Below are positions 3,122 to 7,874 of a DNA stretch of 10,263 nt, piece after piece. The notes beneath the pieces are model-generated. The model was not told the DNA's origin, ran no database searches, and saw only the letters and a list, made by a program, of their open reading frames with translations. Every line of letters begins with the position of its first letter. Position 1 is the stretch's first letter. The stretch is from the NCBI GenBank assembly GCA_023145595.1, contig JAGLDM010000171.1, positions 1 to 10,263 on the forward strand, written 5' to 3'. A program made the translations under genes and the position numbers. The DNA is from Flavobacteriaceae bacterium. GTDB taxonomy: Bacteria; Bacteroidota; Bacteroidia; Flavobacteriales; Flavobacteriaceae.

Positions 3122-3129
3122 CAAAGGTA
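3122..3129 (-). promoter_or_regulatory. -7 box (TACCTTTG) of the CstB-like gene
   Basis: TACCTTTG on the minus strand matches TAnnTTTG exactly and predicts a start of transcription near 3117, with a leader of about 60 nt. No -33 TTG is evident; the dyad centred 33 bp upstream takes its place, as expected at an activator-dependent promoter. Confidence 0.65.
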
Positions 3130-3151
3130 TAGCTTCTCTTAAATTTTTGAA

Positions 3152-3165
3152 GTAACATTGATTAC
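3152..3165. promoter_or_regulatory. Crp/Fnr-type operator (GTAACATTGATTAC) before the CstB-like gene
   Basis: The dyad GTAA-N6-TTAC has the spacing of Crp/Fnr-family sites (CRP: TGTGA-N6-TCACA). It starts 2 bp past the exporter stop codon and its centre (3158.5) is 33 bp from the centre of the -7 box, so about -41 from the predicted start. It differs from the site at 4031-4044 in two of 14 bases. The likely ligand is the regulator encoded at 4055-4687. Confidence 0.7.
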
Positions 3166-3167
3166 AT

Positions 3168-3977
3168 TTACTGTCCTATAAAAAACTCCATATAAAACAT
3201 GAAAATTGCCATTACAAAGATAAAGTACCCAAACCCTTTTTTTAATTTTTCACCGTTAATAAAACTGCTTAGATAACTTCCTATAAATATCCCTACAAAA
3301 GAAAGCCCCGCAAATATTGATAAGAATATCCAATCAATTTCCATATTAAAGGCATCACCCAAGAAAAAGCCCATCAAAGACTTAAGGGCTATGATAATCA
3401 ATGAAGTACCAACGGCTACTTTCATCTCAACGTTTGCTAATATTACCAATGCTGGGATAATTAAAAATCCTCCACCGGCTCCAATAAACCCCGTAATTAC
3501 ACCAACAAATAATCCTTCAATTAGTATTAAAGGGTAATTGTATTTTACTTTTCTGGTTAAATTTGTCGAACTATCTTTTTCTTTCAGCATTGAAAAAGCC
3601 GCAGGTATCATTAACACTGCAAATAAGCCAAACATGCCCATTCTACGTGTAAATTCAAAATCATTGAAGGTAAATAATACATCTGGTAATGCTGGAACTA
3701 CATAATATCTTACCACAGACACACCAATAACAGAAGGTACTCCAAACACGAATGCTGTTCTCCAGTCTACAAAACCTTTTTTGTGTTGCTTAAATCCTCC
3801 TACAAGAGCACTTGCTCCGACTACAAATAATGAATATGCAGTCGCTACTTTTTCATTAACAGCAAATAAATACGCTAAAACTGGCACTGCTAAAATAGAG
3901 CCACCTCCCCCTATAAGTCCGAGAGATATTCCTATAATAAGCGCACTTATATATCCAAATATTTCTGTTAATAACAT
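3168..3977 (-). CDS. TauE/SafE (TSUP) family anion exporter
   Basis: The protein has 269 residues, almost entirely hydrophobic, with about eight inner-membrane helices in two homologous halves. Each half has the TSUP signature: GLIGGGGSILAVPVL at 20-34 with ATAYSL at 46-51, and GFIGAGGGFLIIPAL at 163-177 with VGTSL at 189-193. The family (TauE, SafE, CysZ-like functional analogues) exports sulfite, sulfoacetate and other organosulfur anions. Its position between a Crp/Fnr regulator and a CstB-like enzyme parallels tauE in the staphylococcal cst operon, where it is thought to remove sulfite or thiosulfate. Length and topology are normal. A private operator and promoter lie in the 77-bp gap upstream. 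The ATG at 3977 gives a natural N-terminal helix. The substrate is inferred from context, not from residues. Confidence 0.9.
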   Translation of the reverse strand: MLLTEIFGYISALIIGISLGLIGGGGSILAVPVLAYLFAVNEKVATAYSLFVVGASALVGGFKQHKKGFVDWRTAFVFGVPSVIGVSVVRYYVVPALPDVLFTFNDFEFTRRMGMFGLFAVLMIPAAFSMLKEKDSSTNLTRKVKYNYPLILIEGLFVGVITGFIGAGGGFLIIPALVILANVEMKVAVGTSLIIIALKSLMGFFLGDAFNMEIDWIFLSIFAGLSFVGIFIGSYLSSFINGEKLKKGFGYFIFVMAIFMFYMEFFIGQ

Positions 3978-4000
3978 GTGCTGTCATTCTTTTGAAAAAA

Positions 4001-4008
4001 CAAATTAA
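4001..4008 (-). promoter_or_regulatory. -7 box candidate (TTAATTTG) of the TSUP exporter gene
   Basis: TTAATTTG on the minus strand matches TAnnTTTG at all defined positions but one. Its centre lies exactly 33 bp from the centre of the dyad at 4031-4044, the same distance as in front of the CstB-like gene, which is the main reason for choosing it. Confidence 0.5.
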
Positions 4009-4030
4009 CGACATCATTTAAATTTATACG

Positions 4031-4044
4031 GTAACATTTGTTAC
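4031..4044. promoter_or_regulatory. Crp/Fnr-type operator (GTAACATTTGTTAC) before the TSUP exporter gene
   Basis: This dyad has 5-bp arms, GTAAC-N4-GTTAC, perfect apart from the centre. It lies 10 bp beyond the stop of the Crp/Fnr gene and 53 bp upstream of the exporter ATG. The architecture is the same as that of the 3152-3165 site. It is probably bound by the adjacent regulator as a class II activator site; repression is possible but less suited to this position. Confidence 0.72.
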
Positions 4045-4054
4045 GAAGAATACC

Positions 4055-4687
4055 CTAATATTCTAACATAATAATGCGATTCCTTTGTAGTTCTATCACT
4101 TTTTGATTTTCCAATGCCTTTAACAGTCTTGATATTACAACCCTTGATGTATGTAGGTCATAGGCAATTTCTTGGTGGGTACTATGAATTTCACGATCAT
4201 TTGTAACTTTAACTTTATCATGTAAATACCGTAATAAACGTTCATCCATTTTCAAAAAGGCAATGTTATCAATAGTGTCTAACATTTCCATCAAACGATT
4301 ATGATAACTATTAAAAACAAAATTTCTCCAAGTTTTATATTTGCTTGTCCACTCTTCCATTTTTTCAACAGGAATCATGATTAATTTAGAATCTGTTTCA
4401 GCAATTGCCTTAATTTCACTTTTCGTATTACCAATACAGCACGAAAGCGTCATTGCACAAGTATGCCCTTTTTCTAAAAAATATAGAAGAAGTTCATTTC
4501 CTTCGGCATCTTCTCTAAGAATTCTAATAACACCATTGACTAATAATGGCATTGATTTAATGTATTCTCCAACTTCTATAAATGTATAACCTTCTGGGAC
4601 CTCTTTAAAAACGCCAACATTATTAATCTCTTTTAATAATTCGTTTTCAAATAAATGCCCGTAATTTTCTCTAAGTTCTTCAATCAT
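4055..4687 (-). CDS. Crp/Fnr-family transcriptional regulator with a cysteine-rich effector pocket
   Basis: The protein has 210 residues, the usual family length. Residues ~15-115 form the cNMP-type beta-roll, ~118-150 the dimerisation helix, and ~150-210 the winged helix-turn-helix (HQEIAYDLHTSRVVISRLLK at 171-190). The C-terminal part aligns with E. coli CRP without gaps: Arg182 and Arg187 correspond to CRP Arg180 and Arg185, but Val183 replaces Glu181. In the pocket CRP Glu72 becomes Met79 and Arg82 becomes Lys89, so cAMP binding is unlikely. Cys77, Cys83 and Cys84 cluster there (CAMTLSCC). There is no N-terminal FNR-type Fe-S cysteine set. The gene starts 21 bp after the YedE-type gene, so it is probably co-transcribed with it. 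It lies immediately before two matching operators. The role as a sulfur-responsive local activator is inferred; the family is certain. Confidence 0.93.
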   Translation of the reverse strand: MIEELRENYGHLFENELLKEINNVGVFKEVPEGYTFIEVGEYIKSMPLLVNGVIRILREDAEGNELLLYFLEKGHTCAMTLSCCIGNTKSEIKAIAETDSKLIMIPVEKMEEWTSKYKTWRNFVFNSYHNRLMEMLDTIDNIAFLKMDERLLRYLHDKVKVTNDREIHSTHQEIAYDLHTSRVVISRLLKALENQKVIELQRNRIIMLEY

Positions 4688-4708: not shown

Positions 4709-5122
4709 CTAATGAGGTAATTTATCTTTTAAAATACCATAAACATAGGTTCCTAAAACAGCAGAAATAATCACAATTATCATAGAGTAAAAGCCTGCCC
4801 CTAGAAGCGTAAACATAGGGCCTGGACATGCACCAGCAAGCACCCAACCGAGTCCAAAAATAATTCCCCCAACTAAATATCGTGTAATTCCTTTTTGTTT
4901 TTTATCAAAGGTAATCTCATCTCCATAAAAAGATTTGACTTTAAATCGTTTGATTACTTGTACTATTACAATCCCTAAAACAACGGCCACTCCAATAATT
5001 CCATACATGTGAAATGCTTTAAATTGAAACATTTCATAGATACGAAACCAAGATGCCGCTTCTGACTTGTACATGGTAATTCCGAATAAAATTCCTATAA
5101 ATAAATAAAATATACTTCTCAT
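4709..5122 (-). CDS. YeeE/YedE-type (DUF6691-like) half-size sulfur transporter subunit
   Basis: The protein has 137 residues with four predicted membrane helices. The hallmark is LAGACPGPMFTLLGAGF near residues 96-111, the Cys-containing signature of the C-terminal half of YeeE/YedE proteins; in the full-length thiosulfate transporter TsuA such conserved Cys residues line the path. The gene is the second of a pair: the preceding gene ends TAG and the sequence reads TAGTGATG, so the two are translationally coupled. I chose the ATG at 5122; a GTG at 5125 overlapping the stop by one base would add one residue. Two-gene half-size versions (PmpA/PmpB) also occur in the Xylella bigR persulfide operon. 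It probably works with the neighbouring subunit in the inner membrane to take up or expel a reduced sulfur species. Confidence 0.87.
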   Translation of the reverse strand: MRSIFYLFIGILFGITMYKSEAASWFRIYEMFQFKAFHMYGIIGVAVVLGIVIVQVIKRFKVKSFYGDEITFDKKQKGITRYLVGGIIFGLGWVLAGACPGPMFTLLGAGFYSMIIVIISAVLGTYVYGILKDKLPH

Positions 5123-5124
5123 CA

Positions 5125-5682
5125 CTAAAAAATTAAAGGGAACAACAAATGCACCATTACTAGGCCTCCAATAAAGAAACCAATCACTGCAATTAAGGAT
5201 GGTAATTGAAAATCACTCAAACCAGAAATGGCATGACCTGATGTACACCCTCCGGCATACCTAGTACCAAAGCCCACTAAGAAACCGCCAACAACTAAAA
5301 TCATAATACTTTTAACGCTAAAAAGTGCTTCATTCGAAAATAATTCAGTTGGCAAATAAGAGGTTCCTGCACTTGTAATTCCGTAGGAATGCAATTCTAT
5401 GATCACATCACTATTAAGAGATACCACTTCTGAATTTGATAAAAAATTTGCAGCAATAAAGCCGCCAATAATAGTTCCTAATGCAACCAGTAGATTCCAT
5501 CGATCAACTTTCCAATTAAACTTAAAAAAATCAGTATGGTTTCCGGCACCACATATTGTACATACAGTTTTTAAATTTGAAGACATACCAAACTTTTTTC
5601 CAGCCATAAGAAGTAAAAGCATTGTACAAGCAATTAATAACCCTCCAAAGTACCATGGCCATGGTTCAAAAATCCAATTCAT
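5125..5682 (-). CDS. YeeE/YedE-family sulfur transporter subunit, first of the pair
   Basis: The protein has 185 residues with about four or five membrane helices. The conserved YeeE/YedE motif YAGGCTSGHAISGL (Cys146, His150) is present near the C-terminal end. A second cysteine pair, Cys41 and Cys44 (TVCTICGAG), sits in a cytoplasmic or interfacial loop after the first helix, followed by TDFFKF(N)W, as in other short YeeE proteins. Full-length homologues such as TsuA move thiosulfate through a chain of cysteines. Here the function is divided between this gene and the one directly behind it. This is the first gene of the cluster in transcription order. The ATG at 5682 starts directly before the first helix. 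The family is certain; substrate and direction of transport are inferred from the neighbours. Confidence 0.88.
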   Translation of the reverse strand: MNWIFEPWPWYFGGLLIACTMLLLLMAGKKFGMSSNLKTVCTICGAGNHTDFFKFNWKVDRWNLLVALGTIIGGFIAANFLSNSEVVSLNSDVIIELHSYGITSAGTSYLPTELFSNEALFSVKSIMILVVGGFLVGFGTRYAGGCTSGHAISGLSDFQLPSLIAVIGFFIGGLVMVHLLFPLIF

Positions 5683-5735
5683 ATTTGATATTCTACAATT
5701 TGCGGCAAATGTCGATATTTCTGAACAAAATAAGC

Positions 5736-5746
5736 GTAATTATTAC
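5736..5746. promoter_or_regulatory. Possible degenerate operator (GTAATTATTAC) upstream of the sulfur cluster
   Basis: GTAAT-T-ATTAC is a perfect 11-bp dyad 53 bp upstream of the first YeeE start. As a dyad its spacing (GTAA-N3-TTAC) is wrong for a Crp/Fnr site. The left GTAA, however, sits exactly where the promoter-proximal half-site would be if the near-consensus box GACATTTG (minus strand, 5706-5713) is the -7 element and the 33-bp rule holds. The distal half does not match. It is weak on its own. Confidence 0.3.
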
Positions 5747-5801
5747 AAAATAAACAACAATTTTACTGGTTTTATAGAATTCATCGAAGTAAATGTATTT
5801 T

Positions 5802-5940
5802 GACTCTCCGAAACACTGCTCTAACTTTACAATATGCGATTGATTTGGCAAAATAATTGAAAGTAAGTATTTATGCCGTCTATACTAAGTTAGCATCGAA
5901 GGCCGGAACAATTACAAATATTAATAATTTTCTTCCTTAG
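5802..5940 (+). pseudogene. Decayed fragment, probably of a universal stress protein (UspA) gene
   Basis: From 5815 one frame reads TALTLQYAIDLAK, then a TAA at 5854-5856, then LKVSIYAVYTKLASKAGTI and TNINNFLP before a TAG at 5938. The pattern ALxYAIxLAKKLxVxIYxVH is the start of a Usp domain. Upstream, GAC at 5802 followed by TCTCCGAAAC can be restored to D-F-S-E-N by two single-base insertions, and this DFSE(N) motif opens Usp proteins just after the first beta-strand. So about 46 codons of an N-terminal Usp domain appear to survive with two small deletions and one stop, and the rest of the gene is gone. It has no function as a gene now. Assignment to Usp rests on my reading of the motif; that it is a coding relic is more certain. 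Confidence 0.5.
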
Positions 5941-5970
5941 AAAAAATATTTCCTTTTTAAATTGACACTT

Positions 5971-7093: not shown

Positions 7094-7118
7094 AGTTCTA
7101 TTATATAATTCTTTGGGT

Positions 7119-7181
7119 GATGTTCCTGCAACTATTCAAGAACGTACTTGGTCTAGTCCTATTCGGCACACAACAAAGTAA
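7119..7181 (+). pseudogene. Relic 1: 3' end of a DUF3604-type gene
   Basis: Twenty codons in one frame read DVPATIQERTWSSPIRHTTK and then TAA. This is the C-terminal signature of DUF3604 proteins (usually ...TIQERAWTSPIWYTP). Nothing recognisable of the gene survives upstream; the nth stop is only 25 bp away. It matches relic 2 at 7755-7817 in 54 of 63 bases by my count. It is followed by a good terminator, which was probably the terminator of the lost gene. Confidence 0.72.
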
Positions 7182-7203
7182 AATATTAATATATTGATTG
7201 AAG

Positions 7204-7619: not shown

Positions 7620-7817
7620 GTTGTTTATTGGGTCAGGGCAGAATCAAATTTTGATGCTTCAATAAATGCGTTATATTATGTGAGAGCATTAGAAACCCCT
7701 ACTCCACGTTGGAGTTCCTATGATGTAGTAAAAGCCAATTTAGAATTACTAGATGATGTTCCTGCAACTATTCAAAAATGTGCTTGGTCTAGCCCTATTT
7801 GGCACACTGTAAAATAA
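7620..7817 (+). pseudogene. Relic 2: C-terminal 65 codons of a DUF3604-family protein
   Basis: A frame open from a TAA at 7617 to a TAA at 7815 reads VVYWVRAESNFDASINALYY, then VRALETPTPRWSSYDVVKAN, then LELLDDVPATIQKCAWSSPI and WHTVK. It carries the DUF3604 landmarks in order: xDPxFDxxxxAFYYxRVLExPTPRW and the end TIQERAWxSPIWYT. It has no start codon near its beginning and lacks the several hundred residues that should precede it. The ER of the final motif is changed to KC. DUF3604 proteins are large secreted or periplasmic proteins of unknown biochemistry in marine bacteria. The surviving part shows no stop or frameshift, so the truncation may be fairly recent. Confidence 0.8.
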
Positions 7818-7874
7818 AATTTTAAAACGCTGATAACAAACACATTTACAGTTATATATTACACTTTAATTAAG

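What the first reader, a model, noticed from the sequence alone, without database searches (positions are those of the whole stretch)
3122..4044. Two identical-geometry Crp/Fnr promoters inside a persulfide-detoxification cluster
Seen: GTAACATTTGTTAC (4031-4044) and GTAACATTGATTAC (3152-3165) are the only GTAA-N6-TTAC dyads I found, and each precedes one gene of the cluster. Each centre is exactly 33 bp from the centre of a TAnnTTTG-like box (4001-4008, 3122-3129). Neither promoter has an obvious -33 element. Known: CRP-type activators at about -41.5 replace the -35 contact (class II). Inferred: the regulator at 4055-4687 activates the exporter and the CstB-like gene independently of read-through from the upstream genes. 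Characterised cst, bigR and sqrR systems use CsoR or ArsR repressors, so activation by a Crp/Fnr protein would be a different control logic. I am not aware of a characterised example in Bacteroidota.
Basis: partly seen in the sequence, partly recalled or inferred. Interest (0 to 1): 0.72.

Follow-up and report, generated by a model that had tools for sequence, protein, structure and literature searches.

The report
Flavobacterial sulfide-detoxification activator and its promoters
Two matched DNA switches in a sulfur-detoxification gene cluster belong to a widely conserved set of promoters in Bacteroidota that appear to be turned on by one cysteine-bearing relative of the classic CRP protein.

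Summary
The two dyads are the only exact GTAA-N6-TTAC sites in the window, each 33 bp (centre to centre) from a sigma-A -7 box (0 and 1 mismatch). None of 2000 shuffled windows held two such modules. In loci with regulator relatives, box spacing has one sharp peak at 33 bp. In 249 family genomes 118 of 150 printed free-gap matches sit at 33 bp; matches occur in 176 of 206 genomes with the regulator and 6 of 43 without. With the published -12..-5 position of the box, the dyad centres at -41.5, the class II position. Downstream genes include persulfide dioxygenase/rhodanese, TauE, YeeE, SQR-like, SulP, thioredoxin and bd oxidase genes, and a TolC-RND pump. The regulator carries a conserved C-x5-CC where CRP has its cAMP cassette; direct sulfur sensing is inferred, not shown. 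Corrections: activation logic is not new (FisR), and the motif was described for HcpR2. No binding, start-site or expression data exist here. I rate it a new variant of a known kind.

The parts
4031..4044 (-). Dyad 1, GTAACAAATGTTAC, predicted operator centred at -41.5 of the TauE promoter
   Evidence: module conserved in orthologous loci
4001..4008 (-). -7 box TTAATTTG (1 mismatch to TAnnTTTG), 33 bp from dyad 1; predicted +1 about 3996
   Evidence: box position -12..-5 from PMC9723704
3152..3165 (-). Dyad 2, GTAATCAATGTTAC (1 mismatch to GTAAC-N4-GTTAC), predicted operator of the CstB-like gene
3122..3129 (-). -7 box TACCTTTG (exact), 33 bp from dyad 2; predicted +1 about 3117
4055..4687 (-). 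Crp/Fnr-family regulator, 210 aa, predicted activator
   Evidence: PF00027 and PF13545 above cut-off; the only match at E<=1e-3 to itself in its own genome, which is 77% complete
4436..4459 (-). Codons 77-84, with Cys77, Cys83, Cys84, aligned over the CRP phosphate-binding cassette
   Evidence: Cys in 109, 106 and 103 of 109 aligned rows, window included; alignment to CRP
4109..4153 (-). Recognition helix HTSRVVISRLLKALE; Val at the CRP Glu181 position
   Evidence: specificity argument PMC1274295
3168..3977 (-). TauE/SafE family exporter, 269 aa, target 1
   Evidence: PF01925
1658..3058 (-). CstB-like metallo-beta-lactamase plus two rhodanese domains (putative persulfide dioxygenase-sulfurtransferase), 466 aa, target 2
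   Evidence: PF00753, PF00581; best PDB relatives 3tp9 and 3r2u over nearly full length
5125..5682 (-). YeeE/YedE sulfur transporter part 1; no module upstream in this genome
   Evidence: PF04143; no site
4709..5125 (-). YeeE/YedE sulfur transporter part 2 (DUF6691)
   Evidence: PF20398, PF04143

Best explanation
The Crp/Fnr protein at 4055-4687 is the activator of a sulfide/persulfide-detoxification regulon. As a dimer it binds GTAAC-N4-GTTAC centred at -41.5 and recruits sigma-A RNA polymerase as a class II activator at promoters with a TAnnTTTG -7 box and no -33 element. It thereby fires the TauE exporter and the CstB-like gene from separate promoters, and elsewhere in the genome a TolC-family gene and a thioredoxin gene. 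Shown by sequence comparison: the module, its preferred spacing, its conservation, its statistical link with the regulator, and the genes downstream. Inferred: that this protein is the one that binds, that binding activates rather than represses, and that the conserved Cys77/Cys83/Cys84 site in the former cAMP pocket is the switch, most simply by forming di- or polysulfide links with reactive sulfur.
For: Spacing: exact box at 33 bp in 42 of 191 distinct dyad-side contexts, at most 2 at any other distance; the reversed-dyad control gave 6 contexts, none at 33. Family scan: 118 of 150 printed matches at 33 bp. Link with regulator: matches in 176 of 206 genomes with it (E<=1e-35) and 6 of 43 without, p=1e-19; order sample 17 of 79 and 0 of 69. 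Placement: TauE module in 17 of 19 loci when the gap to the regulator gene exceeds 40 nt and 0 of 28 when it does not; 21 of those 28 carry one upstream of the regulator. Own genome: exact modules upstream of a TolC-family gene and a thioredoxin gene, and one regulator match. Sister genome: eight co-oriented transcription units in 25 kb each preceded by a dyad. Helix: Val at position 181 in 103 rows (100 exact dyads in 720 kb), Glu in 6 (0 in 29 kb).
Against: No binding, start-site or expression data. The dyad alone is not enriched in the own genome. The regulator gene and the YeeE operon of the window have no module. Modules are missing in 13 of 62 CstB-like, 34 of 51 TauE, 13 of 21 YeeE1 and 80 of 105 regulator upstream regions; exact dyad plus exact box at 33 occurs in only 21, 12, 0 and 1 of these. 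The loci are not independent: most of the 28 short-gap loci are Flavobacterium, one genome is in twice (L022, L099), and their upstream site is mostly GTAACAAAAGTAAC with TATCTTTA at 34 bp, one mismatch in each part, so the relocation may be a single event. Of three orthologues that lost Cys83 and Cys84 (L027, L032, L037), L032 still has an exact dyad. The Val/Glu contrast rests on 6 loci, two pairs of which look closely related. In the order sample regulator presence goes with genome size.
Confidence: 0.82

Rival explanations
1. The DNA logic is right but the signal is not reactive sulfur: the C-x5-CC site holds a metal or Fe-S cluster, or senses O2, NO or electrophiles, and sulfur genes are only part of a redox regulon.
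For: Downstream genes include bd oxidase, cytochromes, a peroxiredoxin, thioredoxins and TolC-RND pumps. Three cysteines could bind a cluster. L032 lost Cys83/84 and keeps an exact dyad.
Against: The next commonest target groups after TolC are persulfide dioxygenase/rhodanese, TauE and SulP, with YeeE and SQR-like genes also present. The window protein has no cysteines outside 77, 83 and 84, so no FNR-type N-terminal cluster. Bd oxidase tolerates sulfide (recalled), so it fits a sulfide response.
Confidence: 0.3
2. A different Crp/Fnr protein, such as an HcpR-type regulator, uses these sites.
For: HcpR2 was assigned the same consensus (PMC1274295). In a class-level relative the same 33 bp module precedes a prismane-family (hcp) gene (L242). 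Six of 43 genomes without the regulator at E<=1e-35 still have a free-gap match.
Against: The regulator is the only match to itself at E<=1e-3 in the window's genome (that genome is incomplete). The module sits beside the regulator gene and its placement follows the gene order. HcpR2 is described with Pro, this family has Val, at position 181.
Confidence: 0.08
3. The protein is a repressor at these sites, relieved by sulfur.
For: BigR, which controls a yeeE-yedE-pdo2 operon, is a repressor (PMC7315123 passages); SqrR and CstR too (recalled).
Against: An operator centred at -41.5 with no -33 element is the class II activation geometry; a repressor would not need one fixed spacing.
Confidence: 0.06
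4. Chance co-occurrence of dyads and boxes.
For: The dyad alone is common in this DNA.
Against: 0 of 2000 shuffled windows hold two modules, and the spacing peak is seen across many genera.
Confidence: 0.01

Closest known systems
FisR (sigma-54 activator in Cupriavidus and Acinetobacter)
   Same: An activator, not a repressor, of a sulfide oxidation/detoxification operon (PMC7315123 passages); in Cupriavidus said to sense through three conserved cysteines (PMC9774590 passages)
   Different: Described as an AAA+ sigma-54 activator; here a Crp/Fnr protein at sigma-A promoters. A. baumannii FisR does not keep those cysteines
BigR / SqrR / CstR repressors
   Same: BigR controls a yeeE-yedE-pdo2 operon, a similar gene set (PMC7315123 passages)
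   Different: Repressors of the ArsR or CsoR families (families recalled); no such domain here
HcpR2 (Crp/Fnr, predicted at hcp genes)
   Same: Same consensus GTAACnnnnGTTAC (PMC1274295); the same 33 bp module is found at a prismane-family gene of a class-level relative
   Different: Val not Pro at the Glu181 position; sulfur genes rather than hcp; P. gingivalis HcpR binds heme with Met68 (PMC12750200 passages)
E. coli CRP at class II promoters
   Same: Fold and -41.5 geometry (class II rule recalled)
   Different: cAMP cassette segment replaced by a C-x5-CC; half-site GTAAC; TAnnTTTG box
3dv8, Crp/Fnr protein of known structure
   Same: Closest solved relative by sequence (E 9.9e-14); has a C-x5-C aligned to Cys77 and Cys83
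   Different: Glu at position 181; I found no function for it

Membership tests
Crp/Fnr superfamily | cNMP-binding-like domain plus Crp-type HTH | tested here: met
   PF00027 32.6 bits (cut-off 27.5), PF13545 36.9 bits (cut-off 27); fold agrees
cAMP-CRP orthologue | NCBIfam CRP equivalog cut-off | tested here: not met
   58.1 bits against cut-off 266
FNR (4Fe-4S O2 sensor) | N-terminal cysteine cluster plus one central cysteine | tested here: not met
   Cysteines only at 77, 83, 84
HcpR2 | Pro at the Glu181 position | tested here: not met
   Val in 103 and Glu in 6 of 109 rows
HcpR2 | hcp as target | tested here: not met
   no hcp recognised downstream of the 82 sites with an ORF (representatives scanned; not every ORF)
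HcpR2 | Heme binding | not testable with these tools
   needs purified protein
Class II Crp/Fnr-dependent promoter | Operator 33 bp from the sigma-A -7 box (= -41.5 if the box is at -12..-5) and no -33 element | tested here: met
Class II Crp/Fnr-dependent promoter | Mapped start at that place and activating contacts with RNA polymerase | not testable with these tools
   needs 5'-end mapping and in vitro transcription
CstR/BigR/SqrR repressors | CsoR or ArsR domain | tested here: not met
   only cNMP_binding and HTH_Crp_2 found
FisR | AAA+ domain | tested here: not met
   no AAA+ domain
CstB-like persulfide dioxygenase-sulfurtransferase | MBL domain followed by two rhodanese domains | tested here: met
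   enzyme activity not tested

The most novel reading that the evidence does not exclude
A Crp/Fnr lineage of Bacteroidia has turned its cyclic-nucleotide pocket into a three-cysteine reactive-sulfur sensor and runs a dispersed class II regulon, in which a TolC-MFP-RND pump and a bd oxidase serve sulfide defence alongside SQR-like enzymes, persulfide dioxygenase and TauE. It would be a Crp/Fnr persulfide-sensing activator and would make an RND pump part of sulfur detoxification.
Probability: 0.5. Interest if true: 0.82.

Novelty: new variant of a known kind. Interest (0 to 1): 0.7.

Why it matters
My searches found no described activator of sulfide defence in Bacteroidota, which include many abundant marine and freshwater bacteria. 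This gives a protein, an operator, a promoter geometry and a target list that simple reporter assays can test. It also ties a TolC-family efflux gene, the largest single group found downstream (23 of 86 sites), to sulfur defence, and so raises the question of what that pump exports.

Tried and rejected
Chance was rejected. HcpR as the acting protein was considered because the motif is the same; disfavoured, not excluded. No chain named HcpR was among the 54 PDB sequences matched at E<=0.001 by the family profile or in the 50 rows; absence there proves nothing. The Foldseek 'pdb' search was not run.

Looking for another operator in the six Glu181 loci found no GTGAC-N4-GTCAC; two other palindromes with a box near 33 bp (L040, L121) were not convincing.

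The phylum scan found, outside the class, 3 of 223 genomes with one match each at spacing 34 or 35, where the reversed control had 7 matches: no signal there.

Literature searches for a Crp/Fnr regulator of persulfide genes. Searches returned no paper; one search returned only PMC1274295 for the motif. Searches listed 20 of 65, 288, 59 and 1,633 papers. No listed title or abstract start showed such a regulator. The library is open-access PMC only, so this is no proof of absence.

Full report
What is there. The window carries, on the minus strand, two halves of a YeeE/YedE sulfur transporter (5682-5125, 5125-4709), a 210-residue Crp/Fnr protein (4687-4055), a TauE/SafE exporter (3977-3168) and a CstB-like metallo-beta-lactamase with two rhodanese domains (3058-1658). 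The two dyads are at the stated places and are the only exact GTAA-N6-TTAC sites. Each centre is 33 bp from a TAnnTTTG-like box, exact at 3122-3129 and with one mismatch at 4001-4008. Shuffled windows held 0.29 exact dyads on average; two modules (dyad plus box with up to one mismatch at 33 bp) occurred in 0 of 2000. The dyad alone is not over-represented in the genome: 44 sites with up to one mismatch against 92 for the reversed pattern. The composite with up to two mismatches is: 8 matches against 1 control in the window's genome, 20 against 6 in a sister genome.

Conservation of spacing. I fetched 80 named loci with regulator relatives and more loci from an order sample in which 79 of 148 genomes had a match at E<=1e-3. 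Across L017-L125, among 191 distinct dyad-side contexts (each palindrome is counted from both sides), an exact box lay at 33 bp in 42, at 32 bp in 2, at 34 bp in 2, and once each at six other distances. With one box mismatch allowed it was 75 at 33 bp and at most 8 elsewhere. The reversed dyad gave 6 contexts, none at 33; dyads with one mismatch gave an exact box at 33 bp in 22 of 126 contexts. Some genomes are in this set twice, through two searches; identical 70-base contexts were counted once. In a scan of 249 family genomes with the gap free between 10 and 40, 182 had a match; of the 150 matches printed (more exist), 118 were at 33 bp, 8 at 34 and 6 at 32.

Link with the regulator. In the same family set 206 of 249 genomes matched the protein at E<=1e-35. 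Free-gap motif matches occurred in 176 of the 206 and 6 of the other 43 (Fisher p=1e-19); I derived the 43 by comparing the two printed lists. In the order sample the fixed 44-base module was found in 17 genomes, all among the 79 with a protein match and none among the 69 without (p=1e-5); many genomes without it are small, so that test is confounded by size. The reversed 44-base control gave 1 match against 31.

Placement. For 47 loci with the exporter gene just after the regulator gene, the exporter has a module (up to one mismatch in each part, spacing 32-34) in 17 of 19 cases with a gap over 40 nt (the window is one) and in 0 of 28 with a smaller gap; in 21 of those 28 a module lies upstream of the regulator gene instead, and one could not be tested. 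Most of the 28 are Flavobacterium, one genome is there twice (L022, L099), and their site is mostly GTAACAAAAGTAAC with TATCTTTA at 34 bp, so this may be one event with a weaker module. Over all distinct upstream regions the module is present at 49 of 62 CstB-like genes, 17 of 51 TauE, 8 of 21 YeeE1, 0 of 20 YeeE2 and 25 of 105 regulator genes; the exact dyad with exact box at 33 bp at 21, 12, 0, 0 and 1. Shuffled regions gave a rate of 0.0002 or less. I dropped CstB-like hits under 45% identity, hits starting beyond residue 12, starts within 160 nt of a locus end, and identical upstream regions.

Geometry. In F. psychrophilum the sigma-A TAnnTTTG box lies at -12 to -5 (PMC9723704; passages and the first part of section 15 seen). 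A 33 bp distance then puts the dyad centre at -41.5, the class II position (rule recalled). In 116 distinct exact modules an A-rich stretch begins at the predicted +1 (61% A, 14% G) and continues downstream, where some positions are as A-rich, so this is only compatible with a start there. No TTG element is conserved between dyad and box.

Genes downstream. Of 86 distinct modules (spacing 32-34) whose loci I held, 82 had an ORF of 60 or more codons starting within 250 nt. Grouped by similarity: TolC family 23, persulfide dioxygenase or single rhodanese 21, TauE 8, SulP 7, thioredoxin family 5, DUF983 3, an unassigned protein of about 121 residues 3, YeeE 2, cytochrome 2, and eight singles, among them an SQR-like protein, a peroxiredoxin, CydA, a Thioredoxin_9 protein and a marginal DsrE-like protein. 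Representatives were scanned, not every ORF. This is not a census: the loci are 30 of the 31 sites, about one per genome, and 30 sites from ten genomes that I chose because they had many matches. In the window's own genome the exact module also precedes a TolC-family gene and a thioredoxin gene. In the sister genome eight co-oriented transcription units within 25 kb have a dyad: two CstB-like genes, TauE, the YeeE-YeeE2-regulator run, TolC-MFP-RND, an SQR-like gene, cydAB, and an HMA protein with a cytochrome. Seven have a perfect dyad in register; at the second CstB-like gene the dyad in register has one mismatch and a perfect one lies beside it. The box at 33 bp is exact at 2 (TolC, cydA), has one mismatch at 4 and two mismatches at 2 (SQR-like, HMA). 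Other genes in the stretch have no module. Both SQR-like assignments rest on similarity to a type III SQR model below its curated cut-off. That bd oxidase resists sulfide is recalled.

Wider spread. In 296 genomes across the phylum, 31 had a match with gap 20-24: 18 of the window's own family (itself included) or order, 10 of 37 class-level relatives, and 3 of 223 outside the class, these last at 34 or 35 bp with 7 control matches. In one class-level relative a module at 33 bp precedes a prismane-family (hcp) gene (L242). That fits an HcpR-type promoter with the same spacing (inferred; the regulator there was not examined) and warns that the motif alone does not name the regulator.

Prior knowledge. 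FisR is a sigma-54 activator and BigR a repressor of sulfur-detoxification operons in Acinetobacter (PMC7315123 passages); a 2022 review names FisR as an activator with three conserved cysteines, and in it the word Crp occurs only in the reference list (PMC9774590 passages). I also saw passages of PMC12750200, PMC13370916, PMC12531629 and PMC9603854; those passages do not describe this system. So activation is not new and the motif is not new, but the combination with a cysteine-bearing Crp/Fnr protein and this gene set was not found in the searches named under Tried and rejected.

Verdict. That the module is real and tied to this regulator is well supported; that the protein activates is likely; that it senses reactive sulfur directly is an even bet.

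Noticed in passing
L238:9782-15796: A TolC-MFP-RND operon sits among sulfur genes of the sister genome behind a perfect module; TolC-family genes are the largest group downstream of modules (23 of 86 sites). What the pump exports is unknown.
   Followed up: partly
L242:1-1464: A prismane-family (hcp) gene of a class-level relative is preceded by the same module at the same 33 bp spacing, perhaps an HcpR2-type promoter.
   Followed up: partly
L027, L032 and L037: Regulator orthologues that lost Cys83 and Cys84; L032 keeps an exact dyad, upstream of a SulP gene (L141), so their signal may differ.
   Followed up: no
L051:4638-4668: Two perfect dyads, starts 17 bp apart, upstream of YeeE1, a possible tandem operator.
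   Followed up: no
7118-7198 and 7754-7834: Two copies of an 81-nt direct repeat, 83% identical, between the listed ORFs; they look like remnants of a duplicated gene end.
   Followed up: no
5683-5970: The YeeE operon and the regulator gene have no module in this genome, while the sister genome has a perfect dyad upstream of YeeE1.
   Followed up: partly
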